Shown here in pieces: positions 2,025-15,504 of a stretch of DNA of 34,513 nt; positions within the stretch are counted from its first letter, which is position 1, and every line of letters begins with the position of its first letter. The notes beneath the pieces are model-generated. The model was not told the DNA's origin, ran no database searches, and saw nothing but the letters and a program-made list of their open reading frames with translations. This DNA is from Melioribacteraceae bacterium. GTDB taxonomy: Bacteria > Bacteroidota > Ignavibacteria > Ignavibacteriales > Melioribacteraceae. The stretch spans positions 1 to 34,513 of the forward strand of contig WGCV01000028.1 of assembly GCA_015493615.1 (NCBI GenBank). Reading direction: 5' to 3'. The translations under genes were made by a program, and so were the position numbers.

Positions 2025-5000
2025 TTAATCTTTATTAAATTCCGGCACGCGTCCCGGAGTCCAAGGGGCTTTTCCCTTCTCGAGCACTTTTTCCAAAGGC
2101 GCTATTTCATCGGAATAAATTTTCTTAACCTTTGAAAGAAGCGGCGGGAACTCCTCAACAAGAATCTTATATGCCGTTTTTTCGTTTTGCGTTAAACCTG
2201 CGGTTGACTGCCAGTGCGTCCACATCATTGTGTTTACCCGTTCATTAATCGGCACGGGAGACGGAGGTATTTCTTCCTGACTTGCTCGAGGCTTTTGTCC
2301 CGTAAACTTAAACAGAATATCGTCCAGCTCGAGAGAAACCTTTTCCGCTTTGTTGAAATAGGAAATATCCACACCGGGAGTTTGATAAATCGCCTGCTTG
2401 ATGTACTCAACGCGCTTCTTCAATTCCATGGTATATTTTTGAGTTGCGCGGATTGTGCGAACCAAATCTCCCGCTTGCTTTTCAAAGTTAACTACGGCTG
2501 CATAATCGCTCGCAGGCAATGTTGTATTGTTAAGTTTCTTAGCGGTAAATTCAACGGTGTCGGTTAATCCGGTAATTTTTCCTTTGTAATACAACGACAT
2601 AAAAACTTTGTACTTGCCGGGCATAACTCCGATTCCGGAGCGTGATTTTGCGGTAGGATTAAATTTGTTATCCTTAATCGAAATCGGATTAATATCCGGA
2701 TAACGCAAGTCCCAAGTAATTCTGTTTAATCCTTTGCTTACCGGCGCGGTCAATCTTCTGACGCTGTTGTTGTATTCGTCAAGAATCGTAAAAATCAGAT
2801 GAGGTTTAATTTCTTCCTTCTCCTTTCTGATTTCCGAATAAGGGGGCTGAGGGATTTTTTCGCTCTTCTTGAAAAGCTCTTTCTCTTTCTCCTTTCTCAA
2901 TTCAAATTCGGTTTTGGGAACGTCTCTTAAGTAATAAGTAAAAGTCGCCCCAAACGGAGGATTGGGATCGCGGAAGTAATCGGAACCTTGTCCGTATCTC
3001 CCGCCGTTTTGAACGTACATAAGCGCATCCCGGACAGGGAAAATATACGCTTTGGTATTTTTCAAAAACGACTCGCTGATTTTGCGGAGAGGAGAATAAT
3101 CATCCAATATATAAAATCCGCGTCCGAAAGTTGCAATCGCCAAATCGGATTCCCTTTTTTGAATTGCAATGTCGCGGACTGCAATATCCGGCATTCCGCC
3201 TTTCAGCTGAATCCACTTTTCTCCGCCGTTAGGACTGAAAAAGAGTCCGAACTCAGTCCCGACAAAAAGAAGATTCGGATCTTTAAAATCCTGCTGAATT
3301 GTATGAACTGTTCCGTTCTTCGGCAAATTGTTAGATATTGGTTCCCACGTTTTACCTTTGTCCTCGCTCTTCAGAAGATAGGGCTTAAAGTCGTCTCTTT
3401 TTCTGTTATCAAAAGAAGCATAAACAACATTTTCATCAAACTTGGAAGCTAAAATGTCGCTTACATAGCAGTAGGAAGGAACGTCCGGAAACTCGGTTAC
3501 TCTTCTCCACGTTTTGGCGTCTTCGGTGATTGAAATTACTCCGTCGTCGGTCCCGACATAAATTAAATTCTCTTTAACTGGCGATTCATCGAGAGAAACG
3601 GCAGTTCCGTATAGAGAAGTGGAAACGTCTTTAGAGACAGCGTCAATACTCCAATACTTCCCCATCACCTTCCATTTATTTCTATCCGTTCCGGAAGTAA
3701 TATCTCCGCTTATCTTTTTCCAGGTATTTCCGCGGTCGTCGCTGCGGAAAACAAAATTCGCGGCAGTGTAAAGTCGGGTATGAGAATGAGGACTTATAAT
3801 CAACGGCGTGTTCCAATTCCACTTGTACGAAAGTTCTCCTTTTTTCGGTTCGGGGCGAATCGGGATAGCTTCCTTACTTTTTCTGTCGTAGCGAACCATG
3901 TTGCCGTACTGCGCTTCGGCGTAAACTATATTGGGATTTTCCGGATCCGTAGCGCTCCAGAAACCATCGCCGCCGTTTGTAGGATACCAGTCGGCGTTAA
4001 CGATTCCATCCTGATTAATTGTTCTTGTCGGACCGCCGAGACTATTGTTGTCCTGCGTTCCGCCGTAAATGTTGTAAAAAGGATAATCGTTATCTACGGC
4101 AACTCTGTAAAATTGCGTTACAGGTAAATTTGATTTATGCTGGAATGTTAAACCGCCGTCGTACGTCTCATAAACGCCGCCGTCGCCGCCGATTAAGAAC
4201 TGTTTCGGGTCGTCGGGATTTATCCACATTGCATGGTCGTCCACGTGTCTGTCTTTTAGTCCGACGCGCTTCCAGGTTTTTCCGCCGTCTTCGGTATAAA
4301 CCGAGCGGGTTTCAACCGAATAAACTTTATCCACATCTTTCGGGTCGCAATAAATCTCGTTAAAATATTGCCCGCTTGAGGAATGATTACTCATCTTCTG
4401 CCAAGACGCTCCTCTGTTGGTCGAGCGGAAAAATCCTCCTTTGTCGTACTGTGCTTCCACAATAAGATAAAGCACATCAGGATTTACCGGAGATATTGCT
4501 ATTCCCATTCCGCCCAGATCCACTTTGGGCAAACCTTTCATGATTTTGTTCCAAGTCTTTCCTCCGTCGGTGGATTTATAAACGGCTGATTCGGGACCTC
4601 CGCTTATTGCGGTGTAAACATGCCGTCTTCTCTGTTCTGAAGTTGCGTAAAGAACATCCGGATTTCGGGGATCGAAAATAATATTGTTAACTCCGGTGTT
4701 ATCGCTTATTTTCAGAACTCGTTTCCAAGTTTTTCCTCCGTCTGTAGTTTTATATAAGCCTCTGTCTCCGCCCGAAGCCCAAACGGAACCTTCAGCTGCA
4801 ACATAAACAACATCGGAGTTTCGCGGGTCAACGACAATTCCGCCGATTTGACGCGAATTCTTTAAGCCCATATTTTTCCAGCTTGCACCGCCGTCCAATG
4901 ATTTAAACACGCCGTTGCCGTATCCTAAAGCTCGCTGGTGATTGTTTTCGCCGGTGCCCACCCAAACCACATTACTGTTGTTCGGATCAATCGTTACAAC

Positions 5001-9461: not shown

Positions 9462-10073
9462 TCAATAAAAAATTGAAACGTCTCCAACGCCTTCTCTTAT
9501 TACTTCCGGAGCGTCTCCGCTTAAATCGACAATAGAGGAGGGCTTCCCTTCGAGCGGGCCCATCGCAAGCATCAAATCAACCTGATTGGCAAACACGCTT
9601 TTAATTTCGTTGTGATTTATATATGTCTCTCCCAGCCGGTTTGTAACGCTTGTGCTGAGAATCGGATGCCCTAATTCCTTAGCGAGAGTTATGGCAATGG
9701 GGTTATTCGGGATTCTGATCCCGACGGTTTTTCTTTTTGTCCACAATTTTTTAGGAACTTCCTTGGATGCAGGAAGAACAAACGTATAAGGACCGGGAAG
9801 CAGTTTCTTCATCGTCTTGTAGGCGTAATCGGAAACTTTTGCATACTTGGCAATATCTTTTAAGTCGGGACAAACAAAGCTGTACAACTTTGTGCTCGGT
9901 TCGTTCTTAATCATATAAATTCTTTCCAGAGCTTCACGGTTGTAAATATCACAGCCGAAACCGTAAATCGTGTCGGTGGGATAAATAATTACGCCCCCTT
10001 CTTTTAATACTTCAACCGCTTTATTGATATATCGTTGCTGAGGATTGTCGGGATGTAACTCATAATATTCCAT
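9462..10073 (-). CDS. yciO: YciO/YrdC/Sua5 family protein
   Basis: The fold is that of threonylcarbamoyl-AMP synthases, which make the precursor of the t6A base next to tRNA anticodons. The 203 residues match the YciO branch closely: HPDNPQQR near the N-terminus, GGVIIYPTDTIYGFGCDI (27-44), KRKTVGIRIPNNPI in the middle, LSTSVTNR, and the ending VREGVGDV. YciO proteins bind RNA and nucleotides but are not proven to replace TsaC everywhere, so the activity here is uncertain. The ATG follows CGGAG at 6 bases. It is divergent from the MFS gene with 55 bases between starts. No second YrdC-type gene is in the window. Confidence 0.88.
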   Translation of the reverse strand: MEYYELHPDNPQQRYINKAVEVLKEGGVIIYPTDTIYGFGCDIYNREALERIYMIKNEPSTKLYSFVCPDLKDIAKYAKVSDYAYKTMKKLLPGPYTFVLPASKEVPKKLWTKRKTVGIRIPNNPIAITLAKELGHPILSTSVTNRLGETYINHNEIKSVFANQVDLMLAMGPLEGKPSSIVDLSGDAPEVIREGVGDVSIFY

Positions 10074-10091
10074 ATTTACTCCGAAAAATTT

Positions 10092-10099
10092 TATATTTG
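10092..10099 (+). promoter_or_regulatory. Candidate Bacteroidota-type -7 box for the MFS gene
   Basis: TATATTTG matches TAnnTTTG, the -7 element of the Bacteroidota primary sigma factor, 30 bases before the ATG at 10129. No convincing upstream TTTG box at the usual distance was found, so this is a motif match only. Confidence 0.35.
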
Positions 10100-10128
10100 G
10101 TTTTTTATTAATGAGATAATATAAGAAA

Positions 10129-11283
10129 ATGAAAAGAAAGATACCAAAACAAGTTCTGATACTCGGGATGATCAGTTTCTTTACCGATTTTGCAAGCGAG
10201 ATGCTTTATCCGGTTGTCCCTTTGTTTTTAACTTCCGTGCTTGGCGCTTCAATGGCTGTAGTCGGCTTAATCGAAGGCGTGGCGGAGGTTACGGCAAGTT
10301 TGCTCAAAGGATATTTCGGCGCTCTTTCGGACAAGCTGCGCAAGCGCGCGGTTTTCGTAAAAATCGGGTACACGCTCTCGGCAATCGTGAAACCGCTCCC
10401 CGGCTTTTTCCCCTTTATCGGAACGGTGGTTACATCGCGGACTTTGGACAGAGTGGGAAAAGGGATTCGCACCGCGCCGCGCGACGCGCTCCTTGCGGCT
10501 AATGCCGATAAAACAAACCGCGGAGCAATTTTCGGATTTCACAGAAGTATGGATACGCTCGGAGCGGTAGTTGGTCCGCTGATTGCTCTGCTTGTTTTAT
10601 ATCTTTCAGGCGATAATTACAGACTTGTTTTTTACTTTGCGATAATTCCTTCTGTCGGAGCAATCTATTTTGCTTTCCGCGCTAAGGAAAGCGCTGCGGT
10701 TAAAGCGAAAACTAAAAAATATAATTTCGGCGAGTTCTGGAGAACCGCACCGCGAGCTTACAAAAAGCTGCTCGTTCTGATTGCCGTTTTTTCAATTGCA
10801 AACAGCAGCGATGTTTTTCTAATTTTGAAACTCAAATCAATTTCTTCCGATTTTACTGCAATTTTAGGTTATGTTTTTTTTAATGTTATTTATGCTCTCT
10901 TTTCCTATCCGGCGGGAATTCTTTCCGACAAATTCAGTAAACGGATAATTTTCGGAGCCGGTTTAATTATTTTTTCCCTTGTCTATGCGGGATTTTCTTT
11001 CGCAGACAATCTTGTTATTGTTTTTATTCTCTTTACGCTCTACGGTTTTTACTCGGCAGCTACCGATGGGATTTCAAAGGCGTGGATTTCCGATTTTGTT
11101 GAAGATGAAAACAGAGCGACTGCAATCGGACTGTACAACTCCGTTACCGGACTTGGGATTCTCGTCGGTTCTTCCCTCGCCGGCGTTATGTGGGACAGTT
11201 TCAGTTCCGCGGTCCCATTTACCTTCAGCGCGGTTGTCAGCTTTGTTATTGGAATAATTATTCTTACTGATAGAAAAGAATAA
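10129..11283 (+). CDS. Major facilitator superfamily transporter
   Basis: This is a 384-residue inner-membrane secondary transporter with about twelve hydrophobic helices. The loop between helices 2 and 3 (GYFGALSDKLRKRAVFVKIG, residues 61-80) is the MFS motif A, and GILSDKFSKRI near residue 262 is its second-half counterpart. DRVGKGIRTAPRDALLAA (110-127) is a conserved signature of a widespread uncharacterised branch of the family. The substrate is unknown, although drug or sugar export is a common guess for relatives. Length is normal. The start is the only in-frame ATG before helix 1 and has only a weak purine-rich AAGAAA upstream. It is divergent from the YciO gene, and a repeat-rich region follows. 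Confidence 0.88.
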   Translation: MKRKIPKQVLILGMISFFTDFASEMLYPVVPLFLTSVLGASMAVVGLIEGVAEVTASLLKGYFGALSDKLRKRAVFVKIGYTLSAIVKPLPGFFPFIGTVVTSRTLDRVGKGIRTAPRDALLAANADKTNRGAIFGFHRSMDTLGAVVGPLIALLVLYLSGDNYRLVFYFAIIPSVGAIYFAFRAKESAAVKAKTKKYNFGEFWRTAPRAYKKLLVLIAVFSIANSSDVFLILKLKSISSDFTAILGYVFFNVIYALFSYPAGILSDKFSKRIIFGAGLIIFSLVYAGFSFADNLVIVFILFTLYGFYSAATDGISKAWISDFVEDENRATAIGLYNSVTGLGILVGSSLAGVMWDSFSSAVPFTFSAVVSFVIGIIILTDRKE

Positions 11284-13663: not shown

Positions 13664-14128
13664 ATGAATATATACATTGTCAGACATACAATTGCCGCCT
13701 CGGCGGGAAACGAATACGAAAGCGCAATAACCGAAGAAGGGAAAAAGATTTTCAATTTTAACTTAAAATGCTGGTCAGCTGTAAGTCCCCATTTGGATAT
13801 GGTTGTAAGCTCGCCTGTTCCTCGCGCATTTCAAACAGCGAAAATGATTCATGAACATTTTGACACGCCCTACGATGTGATTGTAGAATCGGGATTAGCG
13901 CCCGGCGCGGATTCGGAGCTGATAGCCGCATTAGCAAATTCGTTGGACAAGCGCGATATAGCTTTCGTCGGTCATCTTCCGGATGTCGCTTATCATGTTT
14001 CAAACTTTATTTCGATGTCGGGAGCAAACGCGGTTTTTCTTCCGGGAAATATTGCAAAAATTTCTTTTGAGGGCGAGGTAAGATTAAGGACGGGCTTTCT
14101 GGAATTTCTAATCGGCTCAAAAAAATAA
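13664..14128 (+). CDS. sixA: SixA-like histidine phosphatase
   Basis: This 154-residue cytoplasmic phosphatase belongs to the two-histidine (phosphoglycerate mutase) clan. RHT at residues 7-9 carries the nucleophilic histidine, VVSSPVPRAFQTAKMI (47-62) holds the second arginine region, and GHLPDV near 105 supplies the second histidine. The short length and lack of a large insert fit SixA, which in E. coli removes phosphate from histidine on phosphotransfer proteins. The target here is unknown. The usual RHG is RHT, as in some SixA proteins. The ATG follows AAAGAGA. The stop codon ends just before the 3' end of the oppositely oriented signal recognition particle RNA gene, so the two genes converge. 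Confidence 0.82.
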   Translation: MNIYIVRHTIAASAGNEYESAITEEGKKIFNFNLKCWSAVSPHLDMVVSSPVPRAFQTAKMIHEHFDTPYDVIVESGLAPGADSELIAALANSLDKRDIAFVGHLPDVAYHVSNFISMSGANAVFLPGNIAKISFEGEVRLRTGFLEFLIGSKK

Positions 14129-14129
14129 A

Positions 14130-14219
14130 TCGGAGAACGAACCACCCGAACCGTCCGCTTACCACTGCTTCCTTCCGGACCTGATGGAGTTGGGCGTCGA
14201 TCCGTCAGTCCGTCTCCGA
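14130..14219 (-). ncRNA. ffs: Signal recognition particle RNA (4.5S type)
   Basis: On the minus strand the sequence contains CAGGTCCGGAAGGAAGCAG (around 14183-14165), the GGAA tetraloop and symmetric loop of domain IV that binds Ffh, which is near-invariant across bacteria. The ends TCGGAGA and TCTCCGA pair perfectly, closing a single long hairpin of about 90 nt, the size of the short bacterial form without an Alu domain. It acts in co-translational targeting of membrane proteins with Ffh and FtsY. Confidence 0.95.
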
Positions 14220-14243
14220 AAATAATTCAAAATTTGAGTTGTT

Positions 14244-14272
14244 AATATAGAAAAATTTTAAAACACTGTTTA
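14244..14272 (-). promoter_or_regulatory. Candidate promoter of the SRP RNA gene
   Basis: On the minus strand, TAAACA (14272-14267) and TATATT (14249-14244) are separated by exactly 17 bases, close to the sigma-70 pattern. Transcription would begin near 14237, leaving a leader of about 18 nt to be trimmed from the RNA, as in other 4.5S RNAs. Confidence 0.45.
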
Positions 14273-14286
14273 CAGATTTTTAACTT

Positions 14287-14315
14287 TTGCTTTTTTCGCA
14301 TCTGCAGATTATATT
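14287..14315 (+). promoter_or_regulatory. Candidate promoter of the unassigned RNA gene
   Basis: TTGCTT (14287-14292) and TATATT (14310-14315) are 17 bases apart, with five of six matches in the -10 box. The predicted start near 14322 falls just before the outermost helix of the folded RNA, which makes the promoter and RNA calls support each other. It is back to back with the SRP RNA promoter. Confidence 0.5.
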
Positions 14316-14320
14316 TGAAA

Positions 14321-14485
14321 CACCGACTCCGGCGTGTTCCCGCGGACGTAACGTCGGACGGCCCCCGCAAGGCGCGGGACTTGAAAAATTCGGGGGCAAT
14401 TTACGAGTTTACGGTGTTCCGGCGGACTATACCGTAAACCGTCCGGAAGCAGGCGCCGGACTGGATAACGCTTCCGGCTTTTTAT
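14321..14485 (+). ncRNA. Structured non-coding RNA, family not recognised
   Basis: A G/C-rich island of about 160 bases sits in A/T-rich flanks. Complementary segments give a consistent fold. P1 is TCCGGCG (14328-14334) with CGCCGGA (14454-14460). P2 is CGGACGG (14355-14361) with CCGTCCG (14439-14445). P2 encloses hairpin P3, CCCCCG (14362-14367) with CGGGGG (14391-14396), and hairpin P4, TTTACGGT (14408-14415) with ACCGTAAA (14431-14438). P3 stacks directly after the 5' strand of P2, and P4 abuts its 3' strand, as in a three-way junction. A large asymmetric bubble lies between P1 and P2. A promoter precedes it and a terminator ends it. The open frame through it encodes no plausible protein. 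A divergent 6S RNA is one possibility; RNase P and tmRNA are excluded by size and motifs. Confidence 0.6.
14443..14485 (+). terminator. Terminator of the unassigned RNA
   Basis: CCGGAAGC (14443-14450) pairs with GCTTCCGG (14470-14477) and is followed by CTTTTTATTT. The 5' arm overlaps the 3' strand of helix P2, so the terminator and the mature fold exclude each other during transcription. Confidence 0.7.
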
Positions 14486-14589
14486 TTAAAAAAATAGACA
14501 AATAAAAATGTGCAAATTCACAAATCGGCGGTTAGAACAGGTTAAAACTCAATTCCGGTATATTTTAGATTTTACGAAAGAAAAATAAC

Positions 14590-15504
14590 TTATTCCGAAA
14601 TCTTGTTTTTTTCACGAACAATAAAAAAACCGTCGCTCCCTTTCCTTTGATAAAGAGGCATTAAGATATATCCGCTATACGGACTTGTAATTCTCAAATT
14701 GTTTTGAATAGCCAAGAATTCCGATTTATGTATTGGCTTGAAATTAAAATAACCTTTATTCATACGAAAATTATAATAATTTTCTAGCTTGTGGCGATAA
14801 ATCAATTCCAAATGATGCGGATAATCATTCGAAATTTCTTTTAATAATTCTCTCCCTTTCTTCACTTTTTCCAATTCCGGCGAAATAAATCCGGCATATG
14901 CCAAGCTATGCCAGATACCGGCTTCCAAAGTTCTGCTCGCTTTTGCCGTGTTATGTGTTCCGCCTTCAAAAACAAGCGAGGTCATACCTTTATTCCCGAA
15001 AAAAGAAAGCGCCGTTCCAGGCAAAGTGTCGGAAAGTTTCTCAATAAAAGGAATACCGAACGATTGGGCAAAAGACACGCTTCGAGGGTTTGATGCGGGA
15101 ATACAAAAAACTCCGCTTTTTGCCGAGAATGTGTGTAAATCCAAGAAAAGGCAGTTATCGAAATTATTTTGACAAATTTCATCGGCAATCAAATTATAAA
15201 GTTCTTTTAATTGAATAATATCCGGCGAAGACTCATCTTCGGAAAAAAGATTTTCATCCGTCCACAAACGGTTTAAATCTTTTTCGACAAATCTTTCGTT
15301 AAGTTCGAGGGCGGGTAAGTTCCCTTTCAAGAAAAAGACTTTACCTTTTTGAAAAAGTGAATTTTTTTTCAGTTCCGGCAGAACATTTAATATGGCGTCT
15401 ATCCCGCCTTTCTCGTTCCCGTGAATTCCGCCTATGATAATAAATTTTTTATCTTCGTTATCACCGATTATATCAATAATGTGGCGCGTGTATTCGGCTT
15501 TCAT
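14590..15504 (-). CDS. Aspartoacylase/succinylglutamate desuccinylase family zinc hydrolase
   Basis: This 304-residue metal-dependent deacylase belongs to the AstE/ASPA branch of the M14 carboxypeptidase clan and cleaves N-acyl or amide bonds on small amino-acid derivatives. Zinc ligands are H28 and E31 in GGIHGNEKGG and H124 in LDLHTFSA. DLNRLW (76-81) matches the substrate-binding Asn-Arg pair, and E180 in VFEGGTH is the expected catalytic acid. The C-terminal 80 residues form the small beta domain of the family. It starts 49 bases after the stop of the CBS-GCS2 ligase gene on the same strand, which suggests one transcript. The substrate is not aspartate-specific by any residue I can see, and may be the product of that ligase. 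Confidence 0.85.
   Translation of the reverse strand: MKAEYTRHIIDIIGDNEDKKFIIIGGIHGNEKGGIDAILNVLPELKKNSLFQKGKVFFLKGNLPALELNERFVEKDLNRLWTDENLFSEDESSPDIIQLKELYNLIADEICQNNFDNCLFLDLHTFSAKSGVFCIPASNPRSVSFAQSFGIPFIEKLSDTLPGTALSFFGNKGMTSLVFEGGTHNTAKASRTLEAGIWHSLAYAGFISPELEKVKKGRELLKEISNDYPHHLELIYRHKLENYYNFRMNKGYFNFKPIHKSEFLAIQNNLRITSPYSGYILMPLYQRKGSDGFFIVREKNKISE

What the first reader, a model, noticed from the sequence alone, without database searches (positions are those of the whole stretch)
14321..14485. Unassigned structured RNA gene back to back with SRP RNA
Seen: a G/C-rich 160-base island with a 17-bp-spaced promoter whose start meets helix P1, four mutually compatible perfect helices of 6-8 bp arranged as a three-way junction, and a terminator with a T run. 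Nothing is encoded downstream on the plus strand, so it is a free-standing RNA, not a leader. The terminator stem shares bases with P2, so the RNA must refold after transcription. Inference: a housekeeping-type RNA. Divergent 6S RNA is the main known alternative.
Basis: partly seen in the sequence, partly recalled or inferred. Interest (0 to 1): 0.75.

Follow-up and report, generated by a model that had tools for sequence, protein, structure and literature searches.

The report
Kissing-hairpin RNA antidote to phage toxin
A small structured RNA gene of no known family proves to be two copies of an RNA that Mu-like phages carry beside a predicted RNA-cutting toxin domain, so this bacterium may keep spare copies as an antidote to a phage weapon.

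Summary
Window 14319-14485 holds two tandem paralogous RNAs (A, 14319-14399; B, 14403-14485), not one three-way-junction RNA. Each is two hairpins whose loops kiss through 6 bp. Covariation is strong: 18 of 21 pairs change on both sides, 0 of 500 shuffles reach that. No Rfam family matches.

Relatives lie in Mu-like prophages and viral contigs, convergent with, and abutting, the stop codon of a head gene (MuF) that carries a C-terminal PBECR2 domain, a predicted RNase. Of 30 PBECR2 loci, 23 have computational support for such an RNA there (14 by model), against 0 of 20 MuF loci without PBECR2 by model. RNA divergence tracks the toxin domain, not the MuF part or the gene on the other side. The window genome has RNA copies but no MuF or PBECR2 match; two other orphan sets lie near CRISPR arrays.

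Best reading: an RNA antitoxin that neutralises the phage-delivered RNase, with orphan copies kept by hosts as immunity. The RNA family and its toxin linkage are shown here; inhibition is inferred. Not housekeeping, not 6S.

The parts
14287..14317 (+). promoter-like sequence: TTGCTT, 17-base spacer, TATATT; also reads TATATTTG
   Evidence: sequence. The G004 copies have TAYATTTG or TATTTTTG/A at the same place. Of 26 other loci scanned, 12 have an exact TTGACA in the best pair, and 8 score 10 or more of 12 against 2.6% of shuffles. In that scan the window copies score 8 (another site) and 0.
14319..14399 (+). module A: kissing-hairpin RNA, type A
   Evidence: CM R1/R2 match 14325-14402; R2 82 bits. 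The window sequences are in both models.
14328..14358 (+). module A hairpin 1: stem 14328-14335/14351-14358, inner 3 bp 14336-14338/14345-14347, 3-base bulge 14348-14350, loop CCCGCG 14339-14344
   Evidence: covariation per pair; inner pairs
14361..14397 (+). module A hairpin 2: stem 14361-14367/14391-14397, inner 14369-14371/14380-14382, loop G-CGCGGG-A 14372-14379 that kisses loop 14339-14344
14403..14485 (+). module B: kissing-hairpin RNA, type B
   Evidence: CM R1/R2 match 14405-14483; R2 85 bits; fold z -3.24, 0 of 200 shuffles
14408..14438 (+). module B hairpin 1: stem 14408-14415/14431-14438, inner 14416-14418/14425-14427, bulge 14428-14430, loop CCGGCG 14419-14424
14443..14485 (+). module B hairpin 2: stem 14443-14450/14470-14477, loop G-CGCCGG-A 14453-14460 that kisses 14419-14424; followed by a T run, so also the terminator
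14124..14222 (-). SRP RNA (ffs), neighbour, not part of the system
   Evidence: Rfam RF00169, 58.9 bits

Best explanation
The window holds an orphan tandem pair of kissing-hairpin RNAs. In Mu-like phages the same RNA lies, with its own promoter-like sequence, convergent with the 3' end of the MuF head gene whose C-terminal PBECR2 domain is a predicted RNase carried in the virion. The RNA most likely is the cognate antitoxin: it folds into a compact two-hairpin shape, binds PBECR2 and blocks its active site, perhaps as a tRNA-like decoy, so that the lysogen and the cell making phage survive. Copies without the toxin, such as the window pair, would then protect the bacterium against incoming phages, like orphan immunity genes. 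Shown here: the RNA family, its fold, its linkage to PBECR2, co-divergence with it, and orphan copies. Inferred: RNase activity, binding, inhibition, and protection.
For: Covariation including the kissing pairs. PBECR2 found by Pfam in 7 of 10 proteins tested, among them all 6 complete phage MuF proteins that abut an RNA (E 5e-14 to 4e-22). Of 8 genomes over the PBECR2 cut-off in 164, 4 have an R2 match abutting the gene and 2 more a divergent RNA of the same layout. Of 30 PBECR2 loci, 14 match R2 (E below 1e-6); 20 beat all 400 dinucleotide shuffles for the two-hairpin kissing motif on the convergent strand, against 1 of 30 on the other strand at p<=0.01; the relaxed scan adds L196 and L203; together 23 of 30. 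0 of 20 MuF loci without PBECR2 match R2, and the relaxed scan gives p<=0.01 in 2 of 19 of them against 22 of 30. RNA distance follows the toxin domain after removing the MuF part (partial Mantel 0.575, p 0.0004) or the gene on the other side (0.578, p 0.001), with nothing left for those two. In L098 two prophage copies are about 90% alike over MuF, about 55% over the C-terminal part, about 60% over the RNA, about 81% after it. The four best rows for the PBECR2 model are chains of CDI toxin-immunity complexes, Z 4.1-4.8. Orphan copies exist in four genomes without a PBECR2 or MuF match: G000, G004, G012, G083.
Against: No experiment. Fold matches are weak: Foldseek gave nothing at E<=0.001, VIA Z is below 5, where the tool warns of mere common arrangements. 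Two PBECR2 genomes of 8 over the cut-off lack the RNA near it: G110, where the domain sits in a 1651-aa frame, and G146, with stops in frame. Three of 30 loci (L194, L208, L209) show no clear motif, and L186, L205, L206, L214 only a weak one. Two of 19 MuF controls pass the relaxed scan (L227, L234), and R2 does not see the divergent types, so the model control is partial. In G083 two copies lie upstream of a different phage protein without PBECR2. RNA and toxin domain adjoin, so shared transfer explains part of the co-divergence. Many of the 30 loci are related to each other.
Confidence: 0.6

Rival explanations
1. The RNA is a partner or cargo of the MuF-PBECR2 protein rather than its inhibitor: for example packaged with it, guiding it to a target, or a substrate that it must cut.
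For: Explains the linkage and co-divergence equally well. Iyer et al. 2017 suggest that an inactive PBECR in phage Mu acts by RNA binding (PMC5512222, passages).
Against: Orphan copies persist where no MuF or PBECR2 gene was matched, in sets of two and four that include both types; a cargo or guide RNA has no use there.
Confidence: 0.17
2. A cis-acting element of the phage late region: antisense RNA or two-way terminator at the end of the MuF gene.
For: The RNA is convergent with the gene and its 3' end overlaps or abuts the stop codon in many loci.
Against: Orphan copies lie beside unrelated genes; MuF genes without PBECR2 lack it by model; both hairpins and the kissing pairs covary, which a terminator does not need.
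Confidence: 0.08
3. A packaging or scaffold RNA that forms rings through loop-loop contacts between molecules, like phi29 pRNA (recalled).
For: Two hairpins with complementary, covarying loops in one RNA, encoded among head genes.
Against: No model match beside MuF genes without PBECR2, including a MuF relative with another C-terminal part (L218); orphan copies in genomes without a matched MuF gene.
Confidence: 0.04
4. A housekeeping RNA such as divergent 6S RNA.
For: Free-standing gene next to ffs.
Against: No fitting Rfam match down to E 10; patchy: 8 of 164 genomes; found in prophages and viral contigs.
Confidence: 0.01

Closest known systems
Type III toxin-antitoxin systems (ToxIN, CptIN, TenpIN)
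   Same: A structured RNA with a pseudoknot-like tertiary fold beside an RNase gene, proposed here to neutralise the protein directly.
   Different: RNA gene downstream of and convergent with the toxin gene, own promoter-like sequence, single unit and not a repeat array cut by the toxin; toxin is a PBECR2 domain inside a virion protein; the fold is two kissing hairpins, not an H-type pseudoknot; orphan RNA copies occur.
MuF polymorphic toxins of temperate phages (Jamet et al. 2017, PMC5576092)
   Same: MuF head protein with a C-terminal toxin domain that varies as a cassette with what lies just downstream.
   Different: The paper (passages read) expects a small immunity ORF after the gene, found for 89.4% of 191 toxin genes; here a structured RNA on the other strand takes that place.
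Orphan immunity genes of CDI and type VI systems
   Same: Extra copies of the antidote without the toxin, sometimes in arrays of different types (G004 has four: B' A' B A).
   Different: The antidote would be RNA, not protein. Compared from search listings and memory only.
BECR-fold CdiA-CT toxins (NC101, Kp342)
   Same: Among the four best rows of the structure comparison with the PBECR2 model (5i4q, 5i4r, 6cp9; Z 4.1-4.5).
   Different: Low Z, 6-10% identity; delivered by CDI with protein immunity.

Membership tests
Type III toxin-antitoxin system | RNA antitoxin encoded upstream of the toxin in one operon with a terminator between | tested here: not met
   RNA is downstream and convergent in the phage loci; definition from PMC5086642 (passages)
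Type III toxin-antitoxin system | antitoxin made of several short repeats | tested here: not met
   Phage copies beside PBECR2 are single units; orphan sets have two or four, in G004 as separate units with their own promoter-like sequences
Type III toxin-antitoxin system | RNA folds with a pseudoknot | tested here: met
   loop-loop helix crossing both stems covaries, as a kissing complex, not H-type; intra- or intermolecular not decided
Type III toxin-antitoxin system | toxin is an endoribonuclease inhibited by the RNA | not testable with these tools
   PBECR2 is a predicted RNase (PMC5512222); no activity data
MuF polymorphic toxin | MuF domain followed by a toxin domain | tested here: met
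   PF04233 plus PF18810 in the 6 complete phage MuF proteins with an abutting RNA
MuF polymorphic toxin | gene next to the portal gene in a phage head cluster | tested here: met
   Portal_Mu (PF06074, E below 1e-91) just before MuF in the 4 loci scanned: L028, L060, L103, L116
6S RNA | match to the Rfam 6S model | tested here: not met
   no match at gathering or to E 10 in 14220-14590
BECR-fold RNase (PBECR2 domain) | shared fold with solved BECR toxins | tested here: inconclusive
   VIA rows 1-4 are chains of CDI complexes, Z 4.1-4.8, rmsd 3.8-4.1 A over 80-89 residues; row 1's chain was not identified as toxin or immunity; Foldseek finds none at E<=0.001

The most novel reading that the evidence does not exclude
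A family of RNA immunity factors: structured kissing-hairpin RNAs, each matched to a virion-borne PBECR2 RNase of Mu-like phages, diversifying with the toxin as a cassette in hosts of more than one phylum, and kept by bacteria as orphan RNA sets, some near CRISPR loci, as a nucleic-acid antidote to phage-delivered RNases.
Probability: 0.5. Interest if true: 0.93.

Novelty: new variant of a known kind. Interest (0 to 1): 0.84.

Why it matters
Immunity to polymorphic toxins is generally taken to be protein, and RNA antitoxins are known from type III toxin-antitoxin operons. A stand-alone RNA that answers an RNase carried in the phage particle would join the two fields. It would make the role of the PBECR domains testable, and it would explain bare RNA copies in bacterial genomes as defence genes. 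A mechanism by RNA shape can be tested by simple loop swaps, because the kissing pairs differ from phage to phage.

Tried and rejected
Single-RNA, three-way-junction model: rejected, because relatives show two independent modules. 6S or another Rfam family: no fitting match in the window, nor at the RNA sites in 19 PBECR2 loci plus L006, where only a tRNA and CRISPR repeats matched (gathering threshold). Weak R1 matches in G059 (two), G028 and G021 (E 0.019-0.05) and R2 matches in G354 and G289 (E 0.0013 and 0.009) were dropped; the G289 match looks to lie in a ribosomal protein gene (my reading, recalled). Search of the phage collection with the PBECR2 domain: one weak match (E 2e-3) and none. 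Exact search with a module A string in viral contigs: none. Of the 118 and 18 stretches brought in by the loop patterns, 7 loci, one of them a duplicate record, hold a full-length match; the others gave none. Folding energy alone does not separate module A from shuffles (51 of 200 fold as well). The absence of other solved BECR RNases from the listed structure rows says nothing. Paper searches with MuF and structured RNA, RNA antitoxin and kissing, and immunity RNA and prophage showed, in the listings, no description of such an RNA; preprints and most subscription journals are not held.

Duplicates and drops: L188, L211 and L213 were left out before the motif counts as copies of L187 and L212, so 30 of 33 loci were counted. 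Among the 30, L187/L207, L190/L201, L183/L184 and L198/L215 are very close. Of the 25 MuF loci, 5 are not counted as lacking PBECR2: L216, L217, L219, L237 carry it (by place) and L239 is a MuF fragment beside L216. Of the remaining 20, L231 lacks its 3' end, so 19 went into the motif control, where L227 and L234 reach p 0.0066. The stricter scan was not run on those 19. A first, stiffer version of the scan gave 14 of 30 with no kissing mismatch allowed, 16 of 3000 shuffles.

Full report
What is in the window. Between the SRP RNA gene (minus strand, 14222-14124) and an aspartoacylase-like gene (minus strand, 14590-15504; Pfam PF24827) lies a G+C-rich stretch with a promoter-like pair TTGCTT-17-TATATT and a terminator-like end. 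Rfam has nothing fitting for it. A DNA search of 58 genomes, the window's own included, found it elsewhere only in one species of the same genus, G004, where the two halves appear as separate, repeated units in the order B' A' B A. Aligning the two halves of the window with the four G004 units showed that A and B are paralogues of one design.

The fold. Hairpin 1 has an 8-bp stem, a 3-base bulge on its 3' side, 3 inner pairs and a 6-base loop. After a short linker, hairpin 2 has a 6-8 bp stem, 3 inner pairs and an 8-base loop. The middle six bases of loop 2 complement loop 1. In six sequences 99.2% of cells pair and 14 of 21 pairs change on both sides. In fourteen sequences the figures are 95.2% and 18 of 21, with 0 of 500 shuffles reaching the covariation score and all slid versions far below; the number of pair types is reached by 57 and 45 of 500 shuffles. 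RNAalifold, working without pseudoknots, added the inner pairs, again with changes on both sides. Whether the loops kiss within one molecule or between two cannot be told from sequence.

Where relatives lie. Covariance model R1 matched 8 of 164 genomes of the order at E<=0.001, 14 matches. In G010, G046 and G137 the RNA sits in a Mu-like prophage, directly after the virion morphogenesis gene, and runs towards the stop codon of the MuF head gene; in G142 it lies beside the end of a MuF-PBECR2 frame at a contig edge. Pfam names Phage_tail_S, Mu-transpos_C, an AAA protein and Portal_Mu among the neighbours tested. Pattern and model searches added viral contigs with the same layout. [quoted passage not shown]

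Test of the link. Starting from the protein instead, 25 viral loci and 8 genome loci were found, including records titled Helicobacteraceae, Desulfobulbus and Bacteroidetes. Of 30 distinct enough to count, 14 match R2 at E below 1e-6 (9 of 15, 5 of 15). On the strand facing the PBECR2 stop codon, 20 of 30 carry the two-hairpin kissing motif better than all 400 shuffles of their own sequence; on the other strand 1 of 30 reaches p<=0.01, and an upstream region scores above zero in 3 of 30, at most 44.5, against 52.5 to 69 for the 20. A scan with looser loop lengths gives 22 of 30 at p<=0.01 and 1 of 30 on the other strand. The union is 23 of 30. The kissing letters differ between loci while staying complementary, for example CAUGGA/UCCAUG (L195), AGUUGG/CCAACU (L198), AGUCAG/CUGACU (L212), CGAUGG/CCAUCG (L204), CGCGGG/CCCGCG (L210). 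By eye L206 and L214 also have six-base pairs (p 0.11 and 0.02). L186 has an insert (R2 E 0.043), L205 reaches p 0.037, and L194, L208, L209 remain unclear.

Controls. Of 25 MuF loci in the order, the 20 without PBECR2 give no R2 match; these include L218, whose MuF domain scores as high as the phage ones but whose C-terminal part is different. R2 also misses the divergent RNA at L237, so it is a partial control. In the relaxed motif scan 2 of 19 controls reach p<=0.01 (L227, L234, 0.0066 each), against 22 of 30 PBECR2 loci. PBECR2 in a 1651-aa frame (G110) and a broken copy (G146) have no convincing R2 match nearby. So the RNA goes with MuF-PBECR2, not with MuF or phage head clusters in general.

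Co-divergence. Across 14 type A/B loci RNA distance correlates with PBECR2 distance (0.55) and not with MuF distance (-0.14). The partial Mantel value for RNA and PBECR2 given MuF is 0.575 (p 0.0004); for RNA and MuF given PBECR2 it is -0.24 (p 0.99). With the virion morphogenesis gene on the other side of the RNA as control (12 loci), the values are 0.578 (p 0.001) and -0.12 (p 0.87). In contig L098 two prophage copies are about 90% alike over the MuF part (376 of 420), about 55% over the C-terminal part (48% in its first half, 64% in its second), about 60% over the RNA, then about 81%. This is the pattern of a toxin-immunity cassette.

The protein. A model of PBECR2 from 16 sequences has mean pLDDT 87.5. 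Foldseek finds no solved structure at E<=0.001. In the second look the four best rows are chains of contact-dependent inhibition complexes (7m5f, 5i4q, 5i4r, 6cp9; Z 4.8 to 4.1). A review says NC101 (5i4q/5i4r) and Kp342 (6cp9) toxins have the BECR fold and that all characterised BECR CdiA-CTs are tRNases except one (PMC9086364, passages). Z under 5 alone would not carry the point; with the Pfam assignment it fits.

Orphans. G000 (the window), G004, G012 and G083 have RNA copies but no PBECR2 match at E<=0.001 and no MuF match at E<=1e-5. G012 has one A and one B copy near a CRISPR array with cas2 and cas9-like genes. G004 has four copies about 1.5 kb from a CRISPR array. G083 has two copies between a tRNA-dihydrouridine-synthase-like gene (named from memory) and phage head remnants. 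These copies keep the fold and the kissing pairs, so something other than phage growth may preserve them.

Mechanism. MuF proteins are head components, and the literature proposes that their toxin domains are delivered with the DNA (PMC5512222 and PMC5576092, passages). A cell that carries or produces such a phage needs protection, expected as a small ORF after the gene (PMC5576092, passages). Here the convergent RNA occupies that place. The simplest reading is that it binds and blocks the RNase. A lone host copy would then blunt the weapon of an incoming phage. Binding and inhibition are inferred. The main rival, an RNA partner or cargo of the protein, explains the linkage but not the orphan copies.

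Limits. No expression data; many loci are related; RNA and toxin domain adjoin, so shared transfer adds to the co-divergence; the motif scan was designed after seeing the first examples; G004 (85% complete) and G083 (77%) are drafts, so a missed PBECR2 gene there is possible.

Noticed in passing
L060:2907-5258 (+) and 3582-4469 (-); L029:9070-11397 (-) and 9859-10746 (+): The MuF head protein is split by an intein (Pfam PF14890 in L060; L029 by eye), and a 295-aa frame lies antisense inside the intein coding region; only a weak HTH match, so its role is open.
   Followed up: partly
L024:5096-7288 (-): A restriction-modification-like frame contains a stretch that looks like a REP-associated transposase, read through in frame (named from memory).
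   Followed up: no
L022:9075-9140 and 9880-9965: Two degenerate copies of CRISPR-repeat-like sequence flank the segment with RNA type B, outside the array; they could be tracrRNA anti-repeats.
   Followed up: no
L006:2864-3262 (-) and 3271-3708 (-): Two small genes of unknown function precede the four RNA copies; the first resembles a SecB-like protein (from memory).
   Followed up: no
L203 (G148), L205 (G068), L194, L212; partly L195, L197: A divergent subtype with conserved GUCGAGA ... GAGACGC ends (only the first end, or variants, in L195 and L197) that R2 does not detect; needs its own model.
   Followed up: partly
L218 (G161): A MuF protein with a different 219-aa C-terminal part without a Pfam match; a possible other toxin type.
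   Followed up: no
L028:9116-9712 (+): A partial second MuF gene just past the RNA, perhaps a recombination leftover of a cassette swap.
   Followed up: no
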